Assembly: GCF_000203815.1 (NCBI RefSeq)
Contig: NW_004457737.1
Coordinates: forward strand, 310,001 to 374,000
DNA length: 64,000 nucleotides
Direction: 5' to 3'
Source of the DNA: Cavenderia fasciculata
Taxonomy: Eukaryota; Evosea; Eumycetozoa; Acytosteliales; Cavenderiaceae
Shown: positions 7,710-22,810 of the stretch, piece by piece
Layout of the letters: each line of letters opens with the position of its first letter
Numbering within the stretch: position 1 is the first letter of the stretch
Translations under genes and position numbers: made by a program
The notes under the pieces: model-generated
What the model was told of the DNA's origin: nothing
Seen by the model: the letters and a program-made list of their open reading frames with translations, nothing else
Databases searched by the model: none

Positions 7710-9920
7710 TTAAATTTTAAATTTAAAGATTGTATTTGTTTTAAAATGACAACGGTCTTGTTTTAATAATTTGACAAGGATGTTGTATTGGTTTTCAGAG
7801 TTGATTTGTTTGGTGTTGGTAGCGTCGATGTTTTGGTACATATGGTAATTAAAGGATTCTTGGTCAAAGAGGAGGAGAGAGGTAGGGGACAGTCGACGGA
7901 TATGGATGAGTTTGAATTCACCGCGATCTTCACCGTAGCATTTTAGGGTTTCGAGTTGCATCAACATGGACAATGATAGGCGTAGATGAGCATTGTTGTG
8001 ACACCTCGTTACATTGGAGAGTGTCAAGTGTCGGACTGATGGCGGTACAATATCATGTATCCAAACATCTCTAAAGAATTGTCCCGATGTTGCCATCACC
8101 GTCAAACACGGAGACATAAAGTGTAGACATGACAAGAGATCGGTACGACCAAACACACCAAGTGAGGTAATGTTGACGGGTAACTCTTTGACAGAGTCTG
8201 GTACGTCGGTGTAGGTGAGTGATCTAAGTGTGGGAAGACTGGTCTTTGTGAGGTGGATATTGACACATACCAGTGTGACCAAATGTTGTGGTAGATGTTC
8301 AAGTTGGAATTTTCGACTAGCCATAATCGATAGAGATGTGATCGTGTCGGGTAGCTTGTACGCATTCCCGTAAATCTCACGTCCAATTGTTAGTGTTGTA
8401 ATATTTGATGTGATTGACTCGATTTTAGGTACACCAAGTGAAAGTATAGATAGTGTTGTTGGAAACAGGTCTTTGGGACTAGTCATCACATCACCACCAA
8501 ACGACAGATATCTTAGGTGTGGAGGGAGTGCACCCAATTTCTCAATCTCTGAAGAGACCGAACCTCCCATCTCTAAATACAATACTGAACTAGGTATATC
8601 TAATTGAACAGTCTCTAATTCTTTCTTTGGTTGTTCATTTGACGATGATGGTAGTTGTGGTGGCATAATGGTAATATGATTGTACAAGAGATATACAACC
8701 GACGATGGGATTGCTTTGAATAGTGGGATATGGGTACTAAGGTATAATGCTTTGACACCTCCATTGTACGGTTGTCCCAATTCCGTGTCTGGACAAAGAC
8801 TGTCGAAAAACGAGCAGGATCTTGGTAATGCCATGATTGGCCATAGAGGTGTTGTCATGATAGCCGATTTTAAAGTGGGTTGACTGACCAGATGGTCCAT
8901 GTCAAATAGTAGAGTGGTCGATGGAGGTTTATCAACACGAAAGTGTTGGAGTGGAGGAAGTAGACCTGTAAACTCGATTGTTATCGGATCTGAACCAAGT
9001 GCAGACCGTATGTCAAGTAGATACAGAGTGTCTGGGAAATAAGCAGTACTGACCTTGTCCGACGCATTGACCGTGACAGTCAAACTTTGCACCGTGTTTG
9101 GTAACTTGGCTTGATACATTGCAAAATGGAATGAACTCAATACCAAGTGTGTAATACTACTTGCCAGCGACACTACTCCAGGTGTTGTTGTAGAGATGGT
9201 CTTTAAAACTTTGAAATATTTACTTTCAATTGATAATTTGGAAATTGTATTTGGTAGTATTGGTAATGGTTCCAAAGACTTGATTTGTTTTGATGTCATT
9301 GTACTTGTTAAAGGGATGGGTGGGATGGTTGACGTACTAGGATTGCTGATAAACTTTAAAACCTCTTGACGTAGATGAATATCAGATACTGGGTAATAAT
9401 ATTCAATCGATAGACCAGAGACTGATGGAGGGATGGCGATCTTGGGATGTGGGTGCATTGATATATTGGTGAATGGGTATTCGTTGATCCAGGCGACATT
9501 GGTCATCTCGTAGTAGTAGAGGACGAGTGGTGACGGATTAAAGTTTCTCTCTCGATTACTCCTAACTATTTTACCGGTCTTGTTTGATACTGGTAGAAAC
9601 AGAGATAGCTGCACACTATCGTTGCCTAGTTGATAGGTATCCTTGCCACGACCAATACCGACCGACCCAGGTATCTGTGAGATATGATCGTTTCTAAATG
9701 AATACAGCTGTTTTCTATGTTTATATATATCCTTGCAAGTGAGTAAAAGGCAAACTCTATCAATAAAATCCAAGTTACAAAGTATCAATGATGTCACCAT
9801 CAAATTAAATTGTAACTTGACCGTCTTGTTATCGTCACCTTTACTATCATATGTATTCTTTTTGTTATGTATTGCATTATTCTTATCTTTTCTTCTCCAC
9901 ATTATTACTAAATAATACAA
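7710..9920 (-). CDS. FNIP/LRR-like repeat protein with degenerate F-box-like N-terminus, 736 aa
   Basis: This is a single-exon gene. Residues about 40-75 (LILCNLDFIDRVCLLLTCKD) resemble the degenerate F-box start seen in large dictyostelid FNIP/LRR families. The body is made of irregular 20-25 residue units of the type [IL]P-x-[ST]-[IV]-x-x-L-x-[IL], for example LPNTISKLSIES, LPNTVQSLTV, LPDTITSLSI, VPDSVKELPVNITSL and VPPSVRHLTLSNV. These match the general look of FNIP-type LRRs without perfect FNIP tetrapeptides. It has no signal peptide or TM segment. The extreme N-terminus may be over-extended: the first ATG at 9920 gives MYYLVIMWRRKD, and a second Met lies six codons in. A scaffold or ubiquitin-adaptor role would fit the family; nothing here shows the partner. 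Confidence 0.75.
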   Translation of the reverse strand: MYYLVIMWRRKDKNNAIHNKKNTYDSKGDDNKTVKLQFNLMVTSLILCNLDFIDRVCLLLTCKDIYKHRKQLYSFRNDHISQIPGSVGIGRGKDTYQLGNDSVQLSLFLPVSNKTGKIVRSNRERNFNPSPLVLYYYEMTNVAWINEYPFTNISMHPHPKIAIPPSVSGLSIEYYYPVSDIHLRQEVLKFISNPSTSTIPPIPLTSTMTSKQIKSLEPLPILPNTISKLSIESKYFKVLKTISTTTPGVVSLASSITHLVLSSFHFAMYQAKLPNTVQSLTVTVNASDKVSTAYFPDTLYLLDIRSALGSDPITIEFTGLLPPLQHFRVDKPPSTTLLFDMDHLVSQPTLKSAIMTTPLWPIMALPRSCSFFDSLCPDTELGQPYNGGVKALYLSTHIPLFKAIPSSVVYLLYNHITIMPPQLPSSSNEQPKKELETVQLDIPSSVLYLEMGGSVSSEIEKLGALPPHLRYLSFGGDVMTSPKDLFPTTLSILSLGVPKIESITSNITTLTIGREIYGNAYKLPDTITSLSIMASRKFQLEHLPQHLVTLVCVNIHLTKTSLPTLRSLTYTDVPDSVKELPVNITSLGVFGRTDLLSCLHFMSPCLTVMATSGQFFRDVWIHDIVPPSVRHLTLSNVTRCHNNAHLRLSLSMLMQLETLKCYGEDRGEFKLIHIRRLSPTSLLLFDQESFNYHMYQNIDATNTKQINSENQYNILVKLLKQDRCHFKTNTIFKFKI

Positions 9921-10169: not shown

Positions 10170-10337
10170 TTGGGGAATCTGCGAACTAGCGCAATGAGAC
10201 CCCACTACCAGAAATTAGCTAATTCCCTCCCCTTACGGGTAAGGGATTTAAAGTGTCTCTAGCAGTGCAAAAAGAGACAGATACTTTAGTTTCTAGTCAC
10301 CTATTTGATCGTGACTAGAAAATCAGCAGGTAAGTAT
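10170..10337 (-). ncRNA. U1 spliceosomal snRNA, copy 1
   Basis: Read on the minus strand, the RNA begins ATACTTACCTG, the universal 5'-splice-site recognition sequence of U1. SL1 is a perfect 11-bp stem (TTTCTAGTCAC/GTGACTAGAAA) whose loop GATCAAATAGG resembles the U1-70K-binding loop. SL2 (GTCTCT/AGAGAC) presents TTGCAC in its loop, the U1A-binding core. SL3 is CCCTTAC/GTAAGGG. An Sm site AATTTCTGG follows, then a terminal SL4 closed by TGGGG/CCCCA with an inner TGCG/CGCA. Length (about 168 nt), order of stems and Sm position all match U1. The 3' end is placed just after SL4 and could shift by a few bases. Confidence 0.95.
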
Positions 10338-11371: not shown

Positions 11372-12424
11372 ATGGATATGGTAAAAATGGTATTAGAAAA
11401 AAGTTTAGGGAGAAATAGTGGTGGTGGTGGTCCCAACATATCATCTCCTTTTGATGTTGTCACTTCATCATTGGTTCCTCCTAATTTGTCTTCCCTCATT
11501 GACAATCTTCCCCTTCCTCCTCCTCAACAAATCCAACCTCAACAAATCCAACACCCACATAATTACAAGACAATTAGACATCAACCATCAATTTTACATG
11601 ACAAAGGTTTAATTGGTGACACTTCATCGATAATGGTATTTAATGAAGTGTCTGATGTGATTACAGTCTATATTACACCCGATCAAAATACACTGTTTCG
11701 TAAAAAGATTGGTGGCGAGGTTGGTATTTCTACCAATGGCGTCAAACTCGGTGCACAGGTAGAGTTTGATAAAAACAATCATGATATAGATCAAATACAA
11801 AAGATACTCATATTGCCTGGTGAAAGCGGTACCTTTCACATTAGCAAGAATACCTTTGCCTACGTACAAGTATTTGTCTATGACAGGAACCACAACGGCG
11901 ATATCGATGTCCTCACAAGACAACTGAAACATGGTGACATTTTCTCTATACTAAACAAACACATAGATGCTGTCAAATCAAAACCATACAAGGTTTATAA
12001 TCAAGATTTTGAGGAAATTGCTACCATCATTCCTCAACCAATTCATTATTTTAGTTATAATCATCCAAATCAAAATCAAAATAACCAAAATAATAATTAT
12101 CATCAAAATAATCATAATAATAATCATAATAATCAAAATAATAATAATAATAATAATAATAGTCATGTTAATACTCACAATAATAATAATAATAATAATC
12201 AAAATGATCATAATAGTCTCAAAACATTATTTAAAAAAGATAGTCAATTTAATGATAGACATCATCAAAATCAAAAAGATAATCATCATGAAGAACAAGT
12301 CCAACAACAACAACAACAACAACAACATCATCATAATCAACATGCCAATTTTGGTACTCACAAACATCGCTCAAATACTGACGGTAGTTATGATGGCTCC
12401 AATCATCCTAAACACCACTTATAA
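11372..12424 (+). CDS. Largest member of the array's paralogue family, with Asn/His-rich tail, 350 aa
   Basis: I do not recognise a named family. The core at residues about 85-220 aligns with the proteins encoded between 14.7 and 22.8 kb. It starts with a hydrophobic strand (ITVYITPDQ) and a Gly-containing turn. The shared signature follows: VQVFVYDRN...GDIDVLTRQL, HGDIFSILNKHID, and KPYKVYNQDFEEI. Unlike the others it has a roughly 80-residue N-terminal extension (poly-Gly and Pro/Gln patches) and a roughly 120-residue C-terminus of Asn, His and Gln runs. There is no signal peptide or TM segment, so it is probably cytosolic. Alternating hydrophobic strands suggest a compact all-beta domain (inference). 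It may be the ancestral copy of the array. Confidence 0.8.
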   Translation: MDMVKMVLEKSLGRNSGGGGPNISSPFDVVTSSLVPPNLSSLIDNLPLPPPQQIQPQQIQHPHNYKTIRHQPSILHDKGLIGDTSSIMVFNEVSDVITVYITPDQNTLFRKKIGGEVGISTNGVKLGAQVEFDKNNHDIDQIQKILILPGESGTFHISKNTFAYVQVFVYDRNHNGDIDVLTRQLKHGDIFSILNKHIDAVKSKPYKVYNQDFEEIATIIPQPIHYFSYNHPNQNQNNQNNNYHQNNHNNNHNNQNNNNNNNNSHVNTHNNNNNNNQNDHNSLKTLFKKDSQFNDRHHQNQKDNHHEEQVQQQQQQQQHHHNQHANFGTHKHRSNTDGSYDGSNHPKHHL

Positions 12425-12617
12425 TTAATTTATTACAAATACAACCCAACTTTCTTTTTTATTGAAATTATGCTATTACTTTACGATTAATTATTATTGA
12501 TTATTAATCATTAATTATTAATGATTAAATATTAATTATTATTATTATTATTTATATTTATACATGTAGATAGAAGAGGATTGATTGATTGATAGGATGG
12601 GAGTAATGAATTTTTTT

Positions 12618-13106
12618 TTAAAAAGTAAAAGTTGGACCATCTTCAATTGGAAATACACCAACAACCTTGTCGGTAAGATCTTCCACTTGTTGTCTTGCAA
12701 AGTTTTGACAATCATTGACGATAAAAGTGTAGTCATCGTTTCCTGGAAGGTCCTTGAAATAAGAATCCCATGAACGTGGACAACATGGTGATCCATAGTC
12801 AGAGGTACGGACCTTTTTACCAACCTTTCCCCAAGTTTGTTTGCAGGCAGCTTCCATTGAATTTTCAATCTTGCAAGCTACAGTGTCATCGGTATTCTTT
12901 TGAATGCAGGCGTACTGTCCATTGCTGAGACTCAAAATGATTGACCAATGATTCCAGCTCCACCAACCCTCCAGTGCACGTAATCCAACCCATACATTTG
13001 TAATCATGATTCCAGTGTTTTGATCTTTGGTTGAGATGTTTTGTCTAACTCTTGGTGATCCATCTTTGTCTGAACCCATCGATGCTAATATTATTGATGC
13101 AATCAT
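12618..13106 (-). CDS. Permuted papain-fold (LRAT/NlpC-P60-like) protein, 162 aa
   Basis: The hallmarks of a circularly permuted papain-like domain are present. A Trp/His motif (WWSWNHWSIILSLSNGQYAC) at residues about 48-67 supplies the catalytic-type His early. A C-terminal NDCQNFARQ motif supplies the Cys, the same arrangement as in LRAT, PPPDE and NlpC/P60-like enzymes. Such proteins act as cysteine peptidases, amidases or acyltransferases; the substrate cannot be read from sequence. It lies convergent to the 11372 gene and downstream of the second U1 gene. The N-terminus is weakly hydrophobic (MIASIILASM) but too short for a confident signal peptide. A second internal Met follows at residue 10. 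Confidence 0.7.
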   Translation of the reverse strand: MIASIILASMGSDKDGSPRVRQNISTKDQNTGIMITNVWVGLRALEGWWSWNHWSIILSLSNGQYACIQKNTDDTVACKIENSMEAACKQTWGKVGKKVRTSDYGSPCCPRSWDSYFKDLPGNDDYTFIVNDCQNFARQQVEDLTDKVVGVFPIEDGPTFTF

Positions 13107-13476
13107 TGTTAATAATAATAATAATAATAAAAATATTTAAATATAATATATTGTTTAATTTTATGATTGTTGTAAATATTATATTGTTGATAATACTATC
13201 ATAACAACAAGGAAGTGCATAGGAATATTTATACTTTTTTTTTTTAAACAATAAATATTATTATTATTAATTAACCAAGTCTAGCTATTTAGTTTTATTT
13301 TATAACCCATTTTAGATTAAAATATTGACTTCTAGATAGATAGATAGATGATGGGGGTTACGATATGATGGATTAACGAGTTTGACTGCTAACAGTTTAA
13401 CTAGTTTACCACTAACTCAAAAATAGAGAAATATATTTATATTTTAATTTATGTCATTGAATTAATTTAGAGTTTG

Positions 13477-13644
13477 TTGGGGAATCTGCGAACTAGCGCA
13501 ATGAAACCCCACTACCAGAAATTAGCTAATTCCCTCCCCTTACGGGTAAGGGATTTAAAGTGTCTCTAGCAGTGCAAAAAGAGACAGATACTTTAGTTTC
13601 TAGTCACCTATTTGATCGTGACTAGAAAATCAGCAGGTAAGTAT
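13477..13644 (-). ncRNA. U1 spliceosomal snRNA, copy 2
   Basis: All diagnostic elements of copy 1 are kept: 5' ATACTTACCTG, SL1 with the GATCAAATAGG loop, SL2 with TTGCAC, SL3, Sm site AATTTCTGG and SL4. The single change I see in the RNA lies in the internal-loop side of SL4, not in the closing GGGG/CCCC stem, so the copy looks functional. Confidence 0.95.
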
Positions 13645-13669
13645 GAATTGTAATAGTCTCGTATTGAAA

Positions 13670-13712
13670 CTATTTATACTTTGCTGTCTCTATTCAATTG
13701 TATATCCCATTG
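13670..13712 (-). promoter_or_regulatory. U1 copy 2 promoter: TATA box and upstream CCCAT element
   Basis: TATAAATAG is at -34 to -26 and the TATCCCATTG element at about -59 to -68. Sequence and spacing are preserved relative to copy 1, while sequence further upstream has diverged. That contrast supports both elements being functional. Confidence 0.65.
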
Positions 13713-13802
13713 ATATATTGATGGAAATTCATAAATAAATAACTATACTATTTAAAATATTTCCAAAGACAACAACAATGGATTTTAAAAAATTCATAAA
13801 TG

Positions 13803-14696
13803 GAAGGAAGGAAAATAAATAAAGGTCAATAATATAGGTGATATCTAAAAGCGAGCGTTAAACACTTGCCAAATCTGTCAAGAAGATAGAATATCCCTCA
13901 TTCAATGACCATTAAATTTTGTCTTTTGACTTTTCAATATTGATGTTATACTTTTGTATTTCTTTGATTTTTTTATAATCAAGCAATATCAGTTGGAGTA
14001 TTACCATCAACCTATATCAGTTGGAGTATTTGATCTATTGTAGTGATCTTTGTATTTCTTTAACGTTGAATGAGATAGATTTCTTTACAAGATCTATGCT
14101 GACTCTTGTATGCATGTATGAGGTAATAACTAGAACTAATTCTTAAAAATAATCATAAATTATAATAATATATGATGTGATTGATGTTGAAGTTCATTCT
14201 TTGCAAAGAGTTTGAGGAATGTTTGTTTGTTTGTCTGTCTAACTCTTCTAGATTGGTGACTATTTGAGATGTGAGCCCAAAGAATTATAAATAATTAAAT
14301 AAAATTAGCCGTTGCTGCTTGGTGGTGATCATTGAAAAAAAAAAAAAACCAAGTTGGTAGTAGTTCTTTTAAAAGGACTATTAAGGAAAACCCTTAACCT
14401 TTTATTATTTATTATATTAATATAATCGCGATCAATTTTTATTAAATCATAACAACACACCCCTCTTTCTTTAGTAATAACACTACTCTCTTCGCTGAAC
14501 TAGATTATTATCACTATTAATTTAAATTTAATTAATAATACAATAATCAAGACAAGACAGAAAGATATTGCAAATAAATAGTATTTAGATGTCATCTTTA
14601 AAAGATCAATCAACAACAACAAACAAACGAATACATATACATATACATATACATATAAAGACACAGCTATAGATAGAACAAAACATCATCATCATC
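13803..14696. other. Intergenic region between U1 copy 2 and the paralogue array
   Basis: AT-rich spacer. A 17-base direct repeat ATATCAGTTGGAGTATT occurs twice, at about 13987 and 14021. There is an A-run near 14336-14347, and a CATATA tandem at about 14634-14656 just before the first array gene. No coding potential is supported. Confidence 0.5.
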
Positions 14697-15251
14697 ATGA
14701 CTACAGCAATAGAACAATCAATAGAACCAGGACCAATTGAATTCAAAGACTATGTGATCATTGCAAACAAGCTACCTCATCCAATAGTAGCATTTCTAAA
14801 TACAGAGGGACCGCCTCTAGAGTTTGTCGATGGCGGTACTACACTACTGAACCCATCCTCTGATAAACAAGCAATCAAACAATTGGAACAAGGATATCTT
14901 CCACACTCTTCACGTTTCTACGTTGGCAAGGGGAAAGGATACACTCAAATATTTGTACCCACCGGTGAAGGTGCCACCAAAAACTATCTGCTCATTGCAA
15001 ACAGAACAATCGATGCAGGCTACAAATTCACAGTTCTTCAAACACACTTGGACGTAATGCTACAAACAAATGATCGACGTTATGACAAGGATTTTCAACC
15101 AATAGCTCTTTTAAATTATAATACTGGTGGTGGTTCGACGCAGCCCAAAACAACAACAACAACTCCGTTCAACCCACAAGACTATAAAGAAATTCAACAA
15201 GTAATAAGAGAAGAACCAATTGAAGATAGAGAAGTTGATGATATACGATAG
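14697..15251 (+). CDS. Paralogue-array protein 1, 184 aa
   Basis: Member of the unnamed family that fills this region. The N-terminal half carries VIIANKLPHPIVAFLNTEG, and the signature half reads YTQIFVPTG ... TIDAGYKFTVLQTHLDVML ... YDKDFQPI. Two usual features are weakened: the G-x-I-H-L strand is replaced by KNYLLIANRTI, and KH is TH. The tail is polar and acidic (EEPIEDREVDDIR). No signal peptide, TM or intron. The leader is A/C-rich (ACAACAACAAAC, CATCATCATC) as in many of its neighbours. Function unknown. Confidence 0.8.
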   Translation: MTTAIEQSIEPGPIEFKDYVIIANKLPHPIVAFLNTEGPPLEFVDGGTTLLNPSSDKQAIKQLEQGYLPHSSRFYVGKGKGYTQIFVPTGEGATKNYLLIANRTIDAGYKFTVLQTHLDVMLQTNDRRYDKDFQPIALLNYNTGGGSTQPKTTTTTPFNPQDYKEIQQVIREEPIEDREVDDIR

Positions 15252-15500
15252 AAGTAGGTTATTAGTAAATACTATCATCAAAATAAATCAATTTCCTTGT
15301 AAATATATATTTATCCAATTTTTTGTTTTCTTTTATTTATTTTTTTTTGACAAATATCTTTTTTGCAATGAAGCCAATCCATTGTAACGATCATAGTACC
15401 TCAAATGTACAAAGTAGGGATTAATCCTTTAAGATCATTTCAAATGATCCAACCCCTACCCTTGCACGTACACCAGCATCCAGTGGACATCAATTAATAT

Positions 15501-15545
<45 letters not shown>

Positions 15546-15706
15546 GAGTTCCTATTAATTTGAGTAGAACTCAACAAACACAACACATAGAGATCTTTTC
15601 CTTTTTTTTTTTTTGTTATTTTTGATGGATAGTGCCAAGTGATCCCAACTTGGATAATCATTTGAACAGAGAAAAAGAAATATATTTACTTAAATAAAGA
15701 GAGAGA
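15252..15706. other. Spacer with (AAT)n repeat
   Basis: It contains a GATCATTT/AAATGATC near-perfect palindrome at about 15435-15451, an (AAT)n run at about 15502-15545 and a T12 stretch near 15603-15614. A CCAAGT/ACTTGG inverted repeat lies at about 15633-15651. It probably holds the 3' UTR of the upstream gene and the former promoter of the broken copy downstream. Confidence 0.45.
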
Positions 15707-16168
15707 ATGGAACCAGAAACATCAATATCAACAACAGGAATAGAAAAAAAATTAATAGTTCAAAACTATTTACCACATCCTATTAAAATCTTTGTCAGTA
15801 CTGAGTGTGTTGGTGAGGAGATTTGGAATGATCTGAAAACTTGTGTTGTAAAGGTGGTAATTGAGGCTTTGCATGACAGCATTGAAATGCTTGCTAAGAA
15901 CAGAGAATGTGATTCCAGCCTCTAATGTTCTTGTAAGCAAGTGTATGTAACCATTGTTGATTGCAACAAATACTTGCAAATAGGCAGGCTCTTTGAGAAT
16001 AAGCATTTCAGCCGATGATGGTTGAGTGTTTGGAACTTTACTTTGGATGTATTGTGAATTTGTTTGAGCTTCATGAGCGTTGGAAACAACACATCTAAAC
16101 GAATTTGTAAAGGCACATGATCACTCACCATTGCACCAGATGCTGATGAACCTTCTCAAGAACAATAA
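15707..16168 (+). pseudogene. Array copy broken by an internal inversion
   Basis: The start (MEPETSISTTGIEKK ... HPIKIFVSTE) on the plus strand closely matches the intact gene at 16387. At about 15811 the homology flips: the middle and signature part (YLQVFVAINNGYIHLLTRTL, LSKHFNAVMQS) is read on the minus strand down to about 15811. Plus-strand homology resumes at 16131 with an acidic tail (ADEPSQEQ, stop at 16168). The flipped segment is bounded by TGGTGAG at 15811-15817 and its inverse CTCACCA at 16124-16130. Re-inverting would rejoin the right side in frame, but the left junction would still meet a stop, so additional mutation has occurred. It cannot encode the family protein as it stands. 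Confidence 0.85.
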
Positions 16169-16386
16169 TACTACTACTACCTACCATATATAATAATAAT
16201 AATAAATAATGTGTAATATACTATACCTCTATTTTGGTATCTCTTTATTTTTGTTTAATTTAATTTTTTTTTTGATGGTTTGATGCGCCATCCCATTTGA
16301 TCTTTAAGGGGCTCCTTTGCACTGCTAGTTACAAAAAATATTATAATAATATATAGAGATATATACAAAAGAGAGAGAGAGAGAGA

Positions 16387-16875
16387 ATGGAACCAGAAAC
16401 ATCAATCACAACAGGAGGAAATTCTATTCCGAATAAATTGATAGTCAAAAACTATTTACCACATTCTGTACGTCTCTTTGTCTGTACTGAGCGGGTACCA
16501 CTTAAAATCGCTCTCGATGGTACTATTTCCAATGATCAGGATACTACAACAGATTCACAAAACATCGCAAGCAGAGATCCAGATCCAACTATCAAACCAA
16601 GATCAGGAGAGTTCTTGATTGGTACGACCAAAGAGTATGCGCATTTGCAAGCATTTGTTTCATTCAACGGCGGCTACATTCACTTGCTTACGAGAAGATT
16701 AGAGTCTGGAATCACTTTCTCCATTCTTAGCAAGCATTTCAATGCCGTCATGCAGAGTCCTTACCACCTTTACAACAACATATTTCAGATCATTATACCA
16801 AATGTCACACCCTTGCTCACCAACACATTAACACCATATGTTGATGAACCTGATCAAGATCAACAAAAACATTAA
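16387..16875 (+). CDS. Paralogue-array protein 2, 162 aa
   Basis: Intact sister of the inverted copy just upstream; both begin MEPETSI. It shows the complete family pattern. The first strand is LIVKNYLPHSVRLFVCTE, followed by ALDGTIS. The second half has LQAFVSFNGGYIHLLTRRLE, then SGITFSILSKHFNAVM and SPYHLYNNIFQII. The tail is acidic and Gln-rich. A GA-repeat leader (GAGAGAGAGAGAGA) precedes the ATG in both this gene and the broken copy (the latter shorter), showing that the promoter was duplicated with the gene. No secretion signal. Confidence 0.85.
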   Translation: MEPETSITTGGNSIPNKLIVKNYLPHSVRLFVCTERVPLKIALDGTISNDQDTTTDSQNIASRDPDPTIKPRSGEFLIGTTKEYAHLQAFVSFNGGYIHLLTRRLESGITFSILSKHFNAVMQSPYHLYNNIFQIIIPNVTPLLTNTLTPYVDEPDQDQQKH

Positions 16876-17106
16876 TAATAATCATAATTATTAATAATTA
16901 ATAATAATAATAAATCACATCATGTAATATATATGTATTCATTTCAACAACTGTACCACTCCACCTCCACTCCTTATTTCAAGAGTTGCTTGACGATATT
17001 GACTCATATTTTTGAGAACCACCACAACTTGTAGATTAATCGACCATCTACTTTAAATTGCATTTGAGAACCAAAAACTTGTTCTTCTTATCATCGCAAA
17101 GAAAGA

Positions 17107-17448
17107 ATGAGTTATAAAACAGAACAAGTAGTATCTGCAAGCTACGTAACAAGACCAAAGGAAGGTTTCATGCATATCGCCGATCACCATGGTGTAGTTG
17201 TCAAGACCAACCAAGGTAACAATTATCTAATACACAGTGTTCCATCGTCTGGTGTCGTTGTTACCGATGCCAAGTATATGACTGGTAATTGGAGGGTTGA
17301 TCATCCGATCAATGTAAGAGGTGCCAAGACTGTTCATGGTGCACATCCGAGTGCATCGGGAAGATCTCTCAACCCAATGGTAAACTACGTCACAAGTGGT
17401 AGTTGTATCATGTCTGCTAAAAATGCTGAAAACTATCTTTTAAATTAA
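17107..17448 (+). CDS. Small LRAT/NlpC-like permuted papain-fold protein, 113 aa
   Basis: Unrelated to the genes on either side. Residues about 20-35 (HIADHHGVVVKT) supply a His-containing strand. A GVVVTDAKYM ... NW block follows, and the C-terminus carries GSCIMSAKNAENYL, with a Cys placed as the nucleophile of permuted papain-like domains (His first, Cys last). Compared with the 12618 gene it is shorter and the Cys motif lacks the Asn-Asp-Cys form, so catalytic competence is uncertain. It is single-exon, without signal peptide or TM, and sits in the same orientation as the array. An amidase, acyltransferase or peptidase-like role is inference from the fold pattern. Confidence 0.65.
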   Translation: MSYKTEQVVSASYVTRPKEGFMHIADHHGVVVKTNQGNNYLIHSVPSSGVVVTDAKYMTGNWRVDHPINVRGAKTVHGAHPSASGRSLNPMVNYVTSGSCIMSAKNAENYLLN

Positions 17449-17700
17449 AACTATAATAATGTAAATAAATAAATAAATGTACAAATACAAATCAAGTATG
17501 AAGGGTGTCTCATAAAGCTTTATCTTCACAAAAAATGGTTCAAAAAAAATCAAAGCCAAAAAAGATCACCACTTTTGATTGCACTCACGATTGATACCTT
17601 TTTCCTTTTGTATATATCAAATATTGTATCAATAACAACAAACAAACAAACAAATTATTTATATTCATATATCAATCTATATTTTAAGTAATAATAGAAA
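17449..17700. other. Spacer upstream of the GAA tract
   Basis: AT-rich, with an (AAAT)n patch near 17461 and (AAAC)n near 17640. I see no gene or structured element. The GAA repeat begins at its end. Confidence 0.4.
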
Positions 17701-17817
17701 GAAGAAGAAGAAGAAGAAGAAGAAGAAGAAGAAGAAGAAGAAGAAGAAGAAGAAGAAGAAGAAGAAGAAGAAGAAGAAGAAGAAGAAGAAGAAGAAGAAG
17801 AAGAAGAAGAAGAAGAA
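17701..17817 (+). repeat. Uninterrupted (GAA)39 microsatellite
   Basis: It is 117 bp of pure GAA on the plus strand, ending 39 bp before the ATG of the next array gene, so in its promoter or 5' leader. Long GAA/TTC tracts can form triplex DNA and impede transcription and replication (established for FXN). No interruptions are visible. Confidence 0.95.
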
Positions 17818-17855
17818 AAGAAATCAACAACATAAAGAATTATTTAAGATAAGAG

Positions 17856-18362
17856 ATGATGACACAACCAGAGACATCAATAGTACCAAACCCCAATGAA
17901 AAGACTATTGTGATTGCAAACAATATACCATTGACGATTACAGCATATGTTTCAACCGACGAATATGTCTTGAATATCGATACGATCACCGGTCTCATCA
18001 CAAACAACACCAATGCCAAAAACAAACAGTCTTCTATCATTCAACCGGTACAGACATCGACGCTACACATCAATTCAAAATTTGCCTACATACAAGTGTT
18101 TGCACATGACAATCATTCCGGTGGTATGATTCATTTATTCGATCGTCAACTAGAGTTTGGTCATACACTCAAGATCCTCAACAAACATTTGGCAGCCAAA
18201 AGAGATGTACCACATTACATCTACGATGGTCTATTTCAAAAAATAAGAATGGTCGATCCGTCACAGACCAATGTTCACAATGTCTTTTACCCTCCTCAAC
18301 CCATTACACCAAAATATTATCAAGATCAAAGTGTGGATGCATATCAACTACCACCACAATAA
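17856..18362 (+). CDS. Paralogue-array protein 3, 168 aa
   Basis: The family core is IVIANNIPLTITAYVSTDE, then NIDTITGLI, AYIQVFAHDNHSGGMIHLFD, RQLEFGHTLKILNKHL and PHYIYDGLFQKI. It is closest in the signature region to the 11372 protein (QVF-V/A-xDxxxxG, RQL, ILNKH). The start could be either of two adjacent Met codons at 17856 or 17859. The tail is Pro/Gln-rich. The gene sits just downstream of the (GAA)39 tract, which may modulate its expression. Function unknown. Confidence 0.8.
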   Translation: MMTQPETSIVPNPNEKTIVIANNIPLTITAYVSTDEYVLNIDTITGLITNNTNAKNKQSSIIQPVQTSTLHINSKFAYIQVFAHDNHSGGMIHLFDRQLEFGHTLKILNKHLAAKRDVPHYIYDGLFQKIRMVDPSQTNVHNVFYPPQPITPKYYQDQSVDAYQLPPQ

Positions 18363-18727
18363 TAATAATAATAATAATAAATAATTACTAAAACATGTTA
18401 CTAATATCCAATCATATTCCCGGTTGTTGTTGTTGTTGTTGTTGTGATCACACCAGGCAATAATAATAATATAATCAAAGGTCAAAGGTCGGTCAAATAT
18501 CAACACCTCTTGTTCCCAAAAAAATAAGTGTTGATCAATCCCCTCCCTCCCTCTCACTCCAAACCAAATTCATTAGGGTTCACTCAAAAAAACAAAGTAT
18601 AGTTTCATACATATATAAATATTTATATACATTATAAATAGCCTATTTATATTCATAATTCTATTATTCTATTTATTTATTTTTTATTTTTTTTATTTAT
18701 TACAATTATTAAAAAAACAAACCTATC
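18363..18727. other. Spacer with GTT repeat
   Basis: It starts with an (AAT)n run and has a short GTT repeat at about 18424-18444. It then becomes pure A/T with T-runs just before the next ATG, as is typical of dictyostelid promoters. No gene is seen. Confidence 0.4.
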
Positions 18728-19207
18728 ATGATGGACGTCATTGTTAATGTTGTTGAGGAACAAACATCGATTACACCAATTCCAATGGGAGATAATGAAA
18801 TTCATAATCAAAGATTTCTAAGATCGATTCGAGTGGCCAATGGAACTGACGATGATGCCATTGTCTATACATCGAGTGAAGGATGTCCATTCAGAGTTGC
18901 TCAAGATGGAACCATAACCCAAAACGTTGATTGTCCAAGTGTAATCAATTTGGCCAGTCAGGCGACATCAGAGTTGCATTTTCTACCAACCACTACTCTG
19001 GTACACATCCAAACATTTATTACCAAAAAGGGACAAGGACGTATATATGTAGGACACAGAGAGGTAACACCAGGTGTCACCTATCGTATTTGTAAGAAAC
19101 ATCTTGACCCTATCCTATCGGCTCCCTACCGTGTCTATGATGAAAACTTTTCAATCATTGCAACCATGCGACCATTTGCACCCACTGCATTTATTAATCA
19201 TCAATAG
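18728..19207 (+). CDS. Paralogue-array protein 4, 159 aa
   Basis: First member of the sub-clade sharing an N-terminal ITPIPMGDNE-like motif with the genes at 19573, 20565 and 21416. It has RSIRVANGTDDDAIVYTSSE, then FRVAQDGTITQ, VHIQTFITKKGQGRIYVGHR and YRICKKHLDPIL. The family end YRVYDENFSII follows, and the protein stops 20 residues later with AFINHQ. The strand-turn-strand spacing is regular. No signal peptide. The alternative start one codon later (MDV) gives nearly the same protein. Confidence 0.85.
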   Translation: MMDVIVNVVEEQTSITPIPMGDNEIHNQRFLRSIRVANGTDDDAIVYTSSEGCPFRVAQDGTITQNVDCPSVINLASQATSELHFLPTTTLVHIQTFITKKGQGRIYVGHREVTPGVTYRICKKHLDPILSAPYRVYDENFSIIATMRPFAPTAFINHQ

Positions 19208-19527
19208 TAAATAAATCGCACAGTTACAATTTAATTAAAATATAGATTGTAATCTATCTCAATTGGTAGGTGATCAAAAAATCAAATATAGATAAATATA
19301 GAATCAATCTATATTTATTATTATATTTATTTAGTTTCTTTGTTTTTACTTCGACCCAAATTTCTGGGTGACCCGAGGGGTTTCAAGAACAGTGAGTAAA
19401 TTTTACTTTAAAAATAACTCTCAAAGTGATTCACAAATAAAGTGATTTATAAAGTGAAAACACAAAAGATAGATAAGATAGAAAAGATAGATAGATAAGA
19501 TAAAGATAAAGATATATATATATATAT

Positions 19528-19559
<32 letters not shown>

Positions 19560-19572
19560 ATATATATCAATA
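19208..19572. other. Spacer carrying a promoter block shared with the 21416 gene
   Basis: The stretch near 19350-19470 (GACCCAAATTTCTGGGTGAC ... AAAGTGA) has a recognisable relative at about 21222-21315 upstream of the 21416 gene. A TA repeat and a (GATA)n tract at about 19530-19557 follow directly before the ATG. Promoters were therefore copied with the genes. Confidence 0.5.
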
Positions 19573-20151
19573 ATGGACTATTCAGAACTACCATCAATCA
19601 CACCAATTCCAATTGGAGAAAACGGACAAGCCCTCCGTTCGCTGCAATTGATAAATGAAACTGAATATGTAGTCATTGCATATGCATCTGGCCAAAGATA
19701 CCCATTCTCAGTTGCTCAAGATGGAACTCTAACAAAAGACACTAGTCTCGATCCAAGTAATGTTACATTGGGTCGTCGTGGAACAACAGCAACCGGACAC
19801 TTGTTGCAATTTGAATCAACAGTTGATTTGGTCTACGTAGTATTATTTATATCTTTACAAGATAAGAGACTTATACATTTGACCAACAGATCTTTTGCAC
19901 CTGGAAGCAAGTTTTGTCTTTCCGACAAACATGTTGCCCCAGATGTTCTAAAGGAAAAATGCTATCATGTCTATGATGAGAACTATCAAAAAATAATACC
20001 AACTCCATTAATAGAAATATCATCAACTCAAACAACAACCCCTCCAACAGGACCATCAACAGAACCACCAGCAACAGAGCCACCATCAACACCACCACAG
20101 ACACTCCTGGCTTATATTAATCATAACCCCATCGATGCTCAACAACCATAG
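19573..20151 (+). CDS. Paralogue-array protein 5, 192 aa
   Basis: ITPIPIGENGQ opens the protein. The core runs SLQLINETEYVVIAYASGQ, FSVAQDGTLTKDTSL, VYVVLFISLQDKRLIHLTNR and CLSDKHVAPDV, ending YHVYDENYQKIIPTP. It is the longest of the compact members because of a Thr/Pro-rich tail (TTPPTGPSTEPPATEPP) before the shared AYINHN end. Its closest neighbour in sequence is the 21416 protein, with which it shares the IIPTP junction. A tract of (ATT)n follows the 3' end. Confidence 0.85.
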   Translation: MDYSELPSITPIPIGENGQALRSLQLINETEYVVIAYASGQRYPFSVAQDGTLTKDTSLDPSNVTLGRRGTTATGHLLQFESTVDLVYVVLFISLQDKRLIHLTNRSFAPGSKFCLSDKHVAPDVLKEKCYHVYDENYQKIIPTPLIEISSTQTTTPPTGPSTEPPATEPPSTPPQTLLAYINHNPIDAQQP

Positions 20152-20283
20152 ACAAAAATCGACTAATCAATTGGTTATTAATAAACCAAACCAAACCAAA
20201 CCAAACCAAACCAACAATTAAATTTATTCAGAAAATTGTATCCTATAATATCACTTCTTTTTTTAAATAAAACTAATCTAATC

Positions 20284-20413
<130 letters not shown>

Positions 20414-20564
20414 ATTCTTGTTTTGATCTCAATAAATCAAGTCCCTCTTGTGAATTGTGTTGACATTGGTAACCCTTGCATACTCACTGGCGAACATATT
20501 TGAATATTAGTTTTACATATAATATTTTATAAACTTATTTATTTATTTATACAAAAAAAAAAAA

Positions 20565-21008
20565 ATGGACAATAGTGAAACTTCTATAACCCCAATTCCA
20601 ATAGTTGAAGATATCGATCATTGTCAAAACCAACTATCTCAACGATCGGTTCGAGTATCTAATGGGACTGATAACATAGTGATTGTTTTTGCATCTAGAG
20701 AAGGATACACATTCACAATTGCTAAAGATGGAACTCTAACAAAACAAACTGCTCTCACTTCATGTGAACTTACATTGGGTCCTCGTTGCTCATCAGTGAT
20801 ACACTTTGAATCAACTGTTGAATTGGTTTACTTTCAAGTATTCATTTGCAAGAATGGTAAAGGACGTTTTTATTTGGGTAGCAGAGAGATAGAGCCTGGA
20901 TTCACCTATAGAATCTTACAAAAACTAGTTGACAGTGTTGAATCGAGACCCCATCACATCTATGATGAGAACTTTGAAGAAATACACATTCAAAGTTTCT
21001 CCTTCTGA
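20565..21008 (+). CDS. Paralogue-array protein 6, 147 aa
   Basis: Shortest intact member. It carries ITPIPIVED, RSVRVSNGTDNIVIVFASRE, FTIAKDGTLTKQT, VYFQVFICKNGKGRFYLGSR and YRILQKLVDSV, then HHIYDENFEEI. The KH pair of the signature is replaced by KL. The protein stops soon after the signature without a low-complexity tail. A pure A13 run sits right before the ATG. The relic at 22025 derives from this gene or a very close copy. Confidence 0.85.
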   Translation: MDNSETSITPIPIVEDIDHCQNQLSQRSVRVSNGTDNIVIVFASREGYTFTIAKDGTLTKQTALTSCELTLGPRCSSVIHFESTVELVYFQVFICKNGKGRFYLGSREIEPGFTYRILQKLVDSVESRPHHIYDENFEEIHIQSFSF

Positions 21009-21415
21009 CAAACACGATTAAATTGATGAACAATTAATTAATTCCGAGGCATCACCAATCACAATTAAAACAAAGAAGATTAAAAAATAATATCAAGATA
21101 TTAATATTAATAAAATATTGATATAGTTTAACATTGTTGAGAAACGAACAATCAAGAACATTGTTTGATTAAAAGCACAATCAATTTTTACTATTTATTT
21201 TTTATTTTTTTATTACGACTCAAATTTCTAGCCCTTGCAACAACAGTGTTTTAGTTAAAATTAGCACTATAACTCTGAGTGATCTTTTATATAATATATT
21301 ATAAAGTGCAAACAAACGAAAAAGATACATAAGATACAAAAGATACAAAAGATACGATAGAAAGATAAATAGATAGATAGATTATCATAGATAAAGAAAG
21401 GAGTACTTTAAAACA
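21009..21415. other. Spacer upstream of array protein 7
   Basis: It holds a diverged copy of the 19350-19470 promoter block (GACTCAAATTTCTAGCCC ... ATAAAGTGCAAAC). This is followed by GATAC/GATAG repeats leading up to the ATG. No gene. Confidence 0.45.
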
Positions 21416-21922
21416 ATGGACGGGCAAGAACCACCATCGATCACACCAAATGGTGACAACGGACAACATTCGCTTGTATTGTGTAATACAACTGAACATG
21501 TAGTCATTGTTTTTGCATCTAGCGAAGAATACACATTCAAAGTTGCTCAAGATGGAACTCTAACAAAACAGACTACTCTCAATCCGAGTTCAATTTCTTT
21601 GGCCCCGCTCGTCGGATCAGGAGTATTGCATTTCTCAACTACATTGGTCCACCTCGTTATATTTATTTCCGTACAAGGTATAGGACGTATACATTTGGCT
21701 AGCAGACCTATAGAAACAGGAAACAAGCTAAAGATTTCAAACAAACATGTTGTCCCGGTTCTAATGACAAACCCCCATGTCTATGATGAAAACTATCAAA
21801 AAATAATACCAACACCATCAATACCAACAGAAACAACAACGTCAACAGAAACAACATATATCCCCACACTCCCAGCTTTTATTAACACTGACGCACATGC
21901 AACAGCTCAACAATCGCGATGA
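21416..21922 (+). CDS. Paralogue-array protein 7, 168 aa
   Basis: Core: SLVLCNTTEHVVIVFASSE, FKVAQDGTLTKQTTL, VHLVIFISVQGIGRIHLASR and LKISNKHVVPVL, then PHVYDENYQKIIPTP. The tail is Thr/Glu-rich (TETTTSTETT) ending in AFINTDAHATAQQ. It resembles protein 5 along its whole length, including the tail, so the two are probably recent duplicates. The shared promoter block agrees with that. Confidence 0.85.
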   Translation: MDGQEPPSITPNGDNGQHSLVLCNTTEHVVIVFASSEEYTFKVAQDGTLTKQTTLNPSSISLAPLVGSGVLHFSTTLVHLVIFISVQGIGRIHLASRPIETGNKLKISNKHVVPVLMTNPHVYDENYQKIIPTPSIPTETTTSTETTYIPTLPAFINTDAHATAQQSR

Positions 21923-22024
21923 TTTGCTGTCAAAAAATAATAAATTATTAATAAACCTATTTGTATAATTACCCAATCAATATATATATATATTTATTCA
22001 AGAAATATTGGATACCCAAAATTT

Positions 22025-22130
22025 ATAGCCATAGTTTTTGCATCTAGAGAAAGATACACATTCACAATTACACAAGATGGAACTCTAACAAAACAGACTA
22101 CCCTCACTTCATGTGAACTTACATTAGGTT
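22025..22130 (+). pseudogene. Relic fragment of an array gene
   Basis: This 106 bp stretch (IAIVFASRERYTFTI, then QDGTLTKQTTLTSC in translation) is about 90% identical by eye to the middle of the 20565 gene. It is cut off on both sides: no start codon upstream, and non-homologous A/T-rich DNA after LTLGC. It is a remnant of a further tandem copy. Confidence 0.8.
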
Positions 22131-22333
22131 GTCCCTTGAAAATTTTAATGTGAAAAAAATTGTTAATAAAGTATTCTGATCTCAATAATTTAAGTTAGGT
22201 TCCCAACACAGCAAAGGAGTATGTATTGGTCTGTTGCAAAGGTTCAAATTTGCATAATTATTCAAAATCAGAAGATTAAAGACACACAAGATAGATAGAA
22301 AAGATAGAGAAAGATACAATAGAAAGATACAAA

Positions 22334-22810
22334 ATGAACGCAGAACTGCCATCTATCGAAACAGCAATTATCGGCGATGATGGACTTACCCAACGATCGA
22401 TTCAAGTGACCAATAAAACCAAATTTGCAGCTATTGTGTATGCATCTAATGAAGGATGTCCATTCACAGTAAATGTGCAAGATGGAACCATAACCCAAAA
22501 CATTAATATTGATAATCCAATCGATTTGGAACCTGGACGTCAATCCCTCCTGAACTTTCCACCCAACTCTCAATTGATACATGTCCAAGTATTTATCAAA
22601 AAGGGTCAAGGAAGTATTTATATGGGCCACAGAACCATTAAGCCCGATATGAACTATCGCATCTTACCAAGACATATCGTTGACGTCGAGTCAGTTCCCC
22701 ACATAGTATTTGAAGAAAACTTTCCAACACCCATTCAACAACCACCATTCTCTAATCCTTCTTCTTTTATCAATTTTCTTAACATTTATGAAGAAGAAGA
22801 AAATGAATGA
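22334..22810 (+). CDS. Paralogue-array protein 8, 158 aa
   Basis: Last member of the array. RSIQVTNKTKFAAIVYASNE, FTVNVQDGTITQNI, HVQVFIKKGQGSIYMGHRTI, NYRILPRHIVDVESVPHIVF and EENF follow the family order. It pairs best with protein 4 (ITQN, KKGQG, MGHR/VGHR). KH is RH. The tail ends in a Glu-run (EEEENE). The leader has the GATAGA/GATACAA repeats typical of this array. Function unknown. Confidence 0.85.
   Translation: MNAELPSIETAIIGDDGLTQRSIQVTNKTKFAAIVYASNEGCPFTVNVQDGTITQNINIDNPIDLEPGRQSLLNFPPNSQLIHVQVFIKKGQGSIYMGHRTIKPDMNYRILPRHIVDVESVPHIVFEENFPTPIQQPPFSNPSSFINFLNIYEEEENE

What the first reader, a model, noticed from the sequence alone, without database searches (positions are those of the whole stretch)
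11372..22810. Undescribed tandem protein family: nine intact genes, one inverted and one relic copy in 11.5 kb
The proteins share a signature I cannot assign: QVF-x-(V/I)...G-x-I-H-L-x-x-R, G-x-x-x-x-I-L-x-K-H, and P-(Y/H)-x-(V/I)-Y-D-E-N-F-x-x-I. They lack signal peptides and introns and look all-beta. Rapid turnover of copies suggests adaptive diversification, for example in defence or recognition, though function is open.
Basis: partly seen in the sequence, partly recalled or inferred. Interest (0 to 1): 0.75.

Follow-up and report, generated by a model that had tools for sequence, protein, structure and literature searches.

The report
Tandem orphan beta-sandwich genes, dictyostelid amoeba
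A social-amoeba chromosome carries a run of nine related genes for small all-beta proteins that match no described family, with relatives on four other contigs including one fused to a zinc-finger GTPase-like protein; it looks like an ordinary lineage-specific gene-family expansion whose function is still unknown.

The parts
11372..12424 (+). Member 1 (350 aa): domain at residues 84-239 by profile, preceded by a Gly/Pro-rich N-terminus and followed by an Asn/His/Gln-rich low-complexity tail
14697..15251 (+). Member 2 (184 aa), closest to the C7/C5 members elsewhere in the genome
15698..16210 (+). Broken copy, sister of member 3, with an internal in-place inversion: 15698-15805 (+), 15806-16086 inverted, 16134-16210 (+)
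16387..16875 (+). Member 3 (162 aa)
   Evidence: model
17856..18362 (+). Member 4 (168 aa)
18728..19207 (+). Member 5 (159 aa)
   Evidence: model
19573..20151 (+). Member 6 (192 aa)
20565..21008 (+). Member 7 (147 aa)
21416..21922 (+). Member 8 (168 aa)
22025..22129 (+). Relic, about 35 codons, nearest to member 7 (90% DNA identity)
22334..22810 (+). Member 9 (158 aa)

Best explanation
A multigene family, shown here in this genome only, made by tandem duplication with loss of some copies (shown: tree, relic, in-place inversion). Each gene encodes one compact beta-sandwich domain (predicted) with a short conserved Ser-Ile-x-Pro-type N-terminal peptide and a variable, often acidic or Pro/Thr-rich tail (seen in the sequence), probably kept in the cytosol (inferred: no visible signal peptide, no conserved cysteines, one weak relative fused to a B-box GTPase-like protein). 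Most likely the domain works as a partner-binding module: free copies bind a protein or other ligand, and the fused relative couples the same binding to a GTPase-like scaffold. This last step is inference; no ligand is known.
For: Nine intact window members and two broken copies. Relatives on C7, C5, C21, C10; C21 profile E 7e-11. C10: 19.3-19.8 bits (E 3-5e-4) at the N-terminus of an uninterrupted 470-aa frame that has a Pfam B-box (E 5e-7, over cut-off) and a P-loop GTPase-like part (E 0.002, under cut-off), against a best decoy of 10.6 bits among 13,559 shuffled or reversed ORFs. Searched back against the genome, its only two non-self matches are family members, E 0.025 and 0.097. dN/dS 0.26-0.74 in 16 of 16 computable pairs of 36: the proteins are under constraint. 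Two models with similar strand order. Tree: the five 3' genes form one supported group (98/98), and C7 (98/94) and C5 (99/96) group by place.
Against: No ligand, expression or localisation data. The C10 match is weak: its best stretch has E 0.002-0.0035 and covers about 57 of 173 profile positions. Only that protein carries the domain: of the 13 GTPase match places, the 12 others give no new hit better than E 2.2, though the stretches scanned are 3.4-4.1 kb and may miss exons. C21's hydrophobic C-terminus (hydropathy 1.58) is no higher than buried strands of other members (up to 1.72), so a tail anchor is not shown. Leaderless dictyostelid proteins can be exported, so a cytosolic place is not proven.
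Confidence: 0.42

Rival explanations
1. Leaderless secreted adhesion protein or lectin: the domain is exported without a signal peptide, as DdCAD-1 is, and acts at the cell surface, for instance in cell-cell recognition during aggregation.
For: No visible signal peptide and a beta-sandwich. DdCAD-1 is a leaderless adhesion protein externalised through contractile vacuoles (passage of PMC3662868).
Against: The fusion to a B-box GTPase-like protein fits an inside location better; no member reaches the cut-off of any Pfam family, lectins and adhesion proteins included.
Confidence: 0.2
2. Near-neutral birth and death of a small, dispensable or developmentally used orphan family, with no recognition role.
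For: dN/dS up to 0.74 between intact copies, pN/pS much alike over N-terminus, loops, helices, strands and tails (0.57-0.73), two dead copies, and no upstream 8-mer shared by more than 3 of 9 genes, as in most of 200 shuffles.
Against: Nine frames stay open at 21-50% protein identity with the same core residues; full neutrality would give stops and dN/dS near 1.
Confidence: 0.25
3. Membrane-binding or pore-forming proteins with a domain like domain 4 of cholesterol-dependent cytolysins.
Confidence: 0.06
4. Cell-autonomous defence: the free copies are sensors or adaptors for B-box GTPases, recognising bacteria that escape the phagosome.
For: Fusion on C10 beside other GTPase-like ORFs.
Against: No positive selection signal; one fusion only; GTPase type not resolved by Pfam.
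Confidence: 0.12

Closest known systems
von Hippel-Lindau protein beta domain (PF01847)
   Different: No sequence support: hhalign score 12.2, below the best of 40 shuffled VHL sequences (15.7); not listed for any of 17 rows at E up to 10; PF01847 over its cut-off nowhere in the genome
Domain 4 of cholesterol-dependent cytolysins
   Different: Tied with unrelated sandwiches; no Trp in the clear members; sequences were not compared
IglE and related transthyretin-like lipoproteins of type VI secretion
Fibroblast growth factor 1
   Same: Highest of four hhalign comparisons: score 23.2, probability 9%, over 35 columns; profile E 0.09 with ten rows
   Different: No match at E up to 10 with 17 rows; the fold matches shown are mostly sandwiches and no trefoil was seen among them
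Dictyostelid lineage-specific gene-family expansions
   Same: Same kind of event: 78 such families with 1,077 genes are counted for C. fasciculata in PMC8535579 (table passage)
   Different: Whether this family is among them could not be seen; no supplements can be read here

Membership tests
VHL beta domain (Pfam PF01847) | Match to the Pfam profile over its cut-off | tested here: not met
   0 matches over cut-off in the whole genome; the single weak hit (17.6 bits, 3 stops) is on C2, not in the family; the 14 control genomes also gave none, so there was no positive control. Not listed for 17 rows at E up to 10
VHL beta domain (Pfam PF01847) | Same beta-sandwich fold | tested here: inconclusive
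Any Pfam-A family | Score above the curated cut-off | tested here: not met
   0 of 9 window members and 0 of 6 stand-alone relatives on C7, C5 and C21; on C10 only the B-box reaches a cut-off
FGF/beta-trefoil | Sequence profile match | tested here: inconclusive
   FGF1 E 0.09 with the 10-row profile, none at E up to 10 with the 17-row profile; hhalign score 23.2, P 0.004 for one comparison, probability 9%, above the shuffles of VHL (15.7 at most)
FGF/beta-trefoil | Beta-trefoil fold | tested here: inconclusive
   Not seen among the rows shown; absence from the list does not exclude it
Cholesterol-dependent cytolysin domain 4 | Same fold | tested here: inconclusive
Cholesterol-dependent cytolysin domain 4 | Trp-rich membrane-binding loop (feature recalled) | tested here: not met
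   0 Trp in 14 of 14 clear members
This family (profile core14) | N-terminus of the C10 B-box GTPase-like protein matches the profile above decoys | tested here: met
   19.3-19.8 bits, E 3-5e-4; best of 13,559 decoys 10.6 bits; weak, best stretch E 0.002-0.0035 over about 57 of 173 positions
GBP-like large GTPases | C10 GTPase part is a GBP | tested here: inconclusive
   Pfam gives only P-loop GTPase matches under cut-off for the C10 protein; a neighbour ORF passes MMR_HSR1 (23.1 bits against 21.9)

The most novel reading that the evidence does not exclude
The domain is an undescribed cytosolic recognition module of social amoebae; the tandem array is a set of interchangeable sensors or decoys that act through B-box GTPases such as the C10 protein, the fusion revealing the partner of the free copies.
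Probability: 0.1. Interest if true: 0.72.

Novelty: new member of a known kind. Interest (0 to 1): 0.35.

Why it matters
It adds an unassigned protein family, with a genome-wide census (a lower bound), a predicted fold and one informative domain fusion, to the large pool of dictyostelid orphans. The fusion to a B-box GTPase-like protein turns 'function open' into a testable binding question. As an event (a tandem lineage-specific expansion) it is ordinary.

Tried and rejected
Motif signature as given: too strict; few members match it literally. VHL likeness, noticed by eye and in a fold list: no sequence support. FGF-like profile hits: gone with more rows, though FGF1 stayed the best of four hhalign comparisons. 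Shared promoter word: none beyond shuffles. Faster change in loops: none. Relatives outside this genome: none in phages, prokaryote genomes or viral contigs; these used one query each (two for viral contigs) and, except for (tblastn), reach close relatives only. Viral structures: best hit I3UL80, E 8e-4, TM 0.46, unnamed, not pursued. Fold lists also showed C2, thaumatin, FN3 and carbohydrate-binding domains, all weak. Literature: six of ten searches, of which only the listed rows (titles, starts of abstracts) were seen: none describes this family. Most subscription papers are not held and I did not look for the species' genome paper, so this is weak evidence of novelty. Dropped hits: C3:1296683 (E 0.06, two stops) and C21:1859881 (E 0.06) were scanned with the profile and not recovered; C1:1793844 (E 0.24, three stops) was not scanned. 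The self-genome searches score only the best candidates, so the census is a lower bound; seven of the 16 members were not used as queries.

Full report
Setting. The window is C1:310001-374000 of a 30,995,898-base, 21-contig genome.

Observation. Nine ORFs of 147-350 aa lie on the + strand, spaced 365-2272 bp apart, the last six members only 365-413 bp apart. They align as one family, all 36 pairs are found by BLASTP, and 14 of 14 leave-one-out tests recover the missing member at E 9e-16 or better. Each is a single open frame, so no intron is needed; transcripts were not available.

Broken copies. The sister copy of gene 16387 has its N-terminal part at 15698-15805 in normal orientation, the next part at 15806-16086 inverted, and the 3' end at 16134-16210 in normal orientation again: an in-place inversion within one gene. 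The 7-mers TGGTGAG at 15811-15817 and CTCACCA at 16124-16130 are reverse complements lying near the two breakpoints, which may be chance or the trace of the event. The relic at 22025-22129 is 90% identical to part of gene 20565.

Genome-wide family. Nine members or relatives served as queries. Stand-alone relatives: C7 (227356, 263581, 264257), C5 (2221506, 2222158), C21 (1473720). The tree puts gene 14697 with the C7/C5 genes (97/93) and the five 3' genes together (98/98); C21 and C10 are long branches of unsure place. C21 ends in a hydrophobic stretch, but its hydropathy (1.58) is not above that of buried strands in other members (up to 1.72). C10:532208 lies in the N-terminus of a 470-aa frame with a B-box (E 5e-7) and a P-loop GTPase-like part (E 0.002, under cut-off). 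Its family match is weak, 19.3-19.8 bits, carried by about 57 of 173 profile positions, against 10.6 bits for the best of 13,559 decoys. In return its only other genome matches are two family members, E 0.025 and 0.097. Of the 13 GTPase match places found, only those whose stretch holds this protein show the domain; short stretches were scanned, so separate N-terminal exons could have been missed.

Sequence relatives. No Pfam cut-off reached by the domain. In the PDB, nothing below E 0.09 with ten rows (FGF1 is the best) and nothing at E up to 10 with 17 rows. Nothing in phage, prokaryote or viral collections with the one or two queries tried. In single hhalign comparisons FGF1 (23.2) stood above VHL (12.2), transthyretin (13.8), fibronectin III (12.0) and 40 shuffled VHL sequences (15.7 at most), at 9% probability; I take it as a short shared motif, not as proof of kinship.

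Selection. By Nei-Gojobori counts, 16 of the 36 pairs of intact window members give a finite dN/dS, 0.26-0.74; 20 are saturated. Among pairs with broken copies: 0.43 for the split copy with 16387, 0.37 and 0.84 for the relic with 20565 and 21416 (the last two on 37 codons). In the 3' subclade pN/pS is 0.70 in loops and 0.73 in strands; only the few alignment-insert codons reach 1.01, on 28 synonymous sites. This is constraint, at most relaxed, without evidence of diversifying selection. Pairwise counts cannot exclude selection on single sites.

Mechanism. Shown: family, duplications, losses, constraint. Predicted: sandwich fold. Inferred: cytosolic site, binding role, coupling to a GTPase-like protein. 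PMC5758549 (passages) reports a single GBP homologue in D. discoideum with unknown role; I do not claim that the C10 protein is a GBP.

Verdict. A real, so far unassigned multigene family; ordinary as a kind of event, with one fusion worth following.

Noticed in passing
window 10170-10337 (-) and 13477-13644 (-): Two U1 snRNA-like genes (Rfam RF00003, 56.7 and 57.0 bits, E about 4e-12, below the gathering score of 69.5) inside a duplicated unit of about 300 bp (95% identical; 98% over 280 bases) on either side of gene 11372; two diverged relatives on C7.
   Followed up: partly
window 17107-17448 (+): 113-aa ORF without Pfam match standing between family members 3 and 4.
   Followed up: no
window 12618-13106 (-): 162-aa Trp/Cys-rich ORF on the opposite strand between members 1 and 2, no Pfam match over cut-off.
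   Followed up: no
window 7710-9902 (-): 730-aa FNIP-repeat protein (E 4e-8) with a doubtful F-box (E 0.11).
   Followed up: no
window 15811-15817 and 16124-16130: A 7-bp inverted match lies near the two breakpoints of the in-place inversion.
   Followed up: partly
L039 (C10:528000-536000): Cluster of B-box/P-loop GTPase-like ORFs on one strand, type not resolved by Pfam.
   Followed up: partly
window about 17697-17816 and about 20284-20410: Long AAG and ATT triplet runs upstream of members 4 and 7.
   Followed up: no
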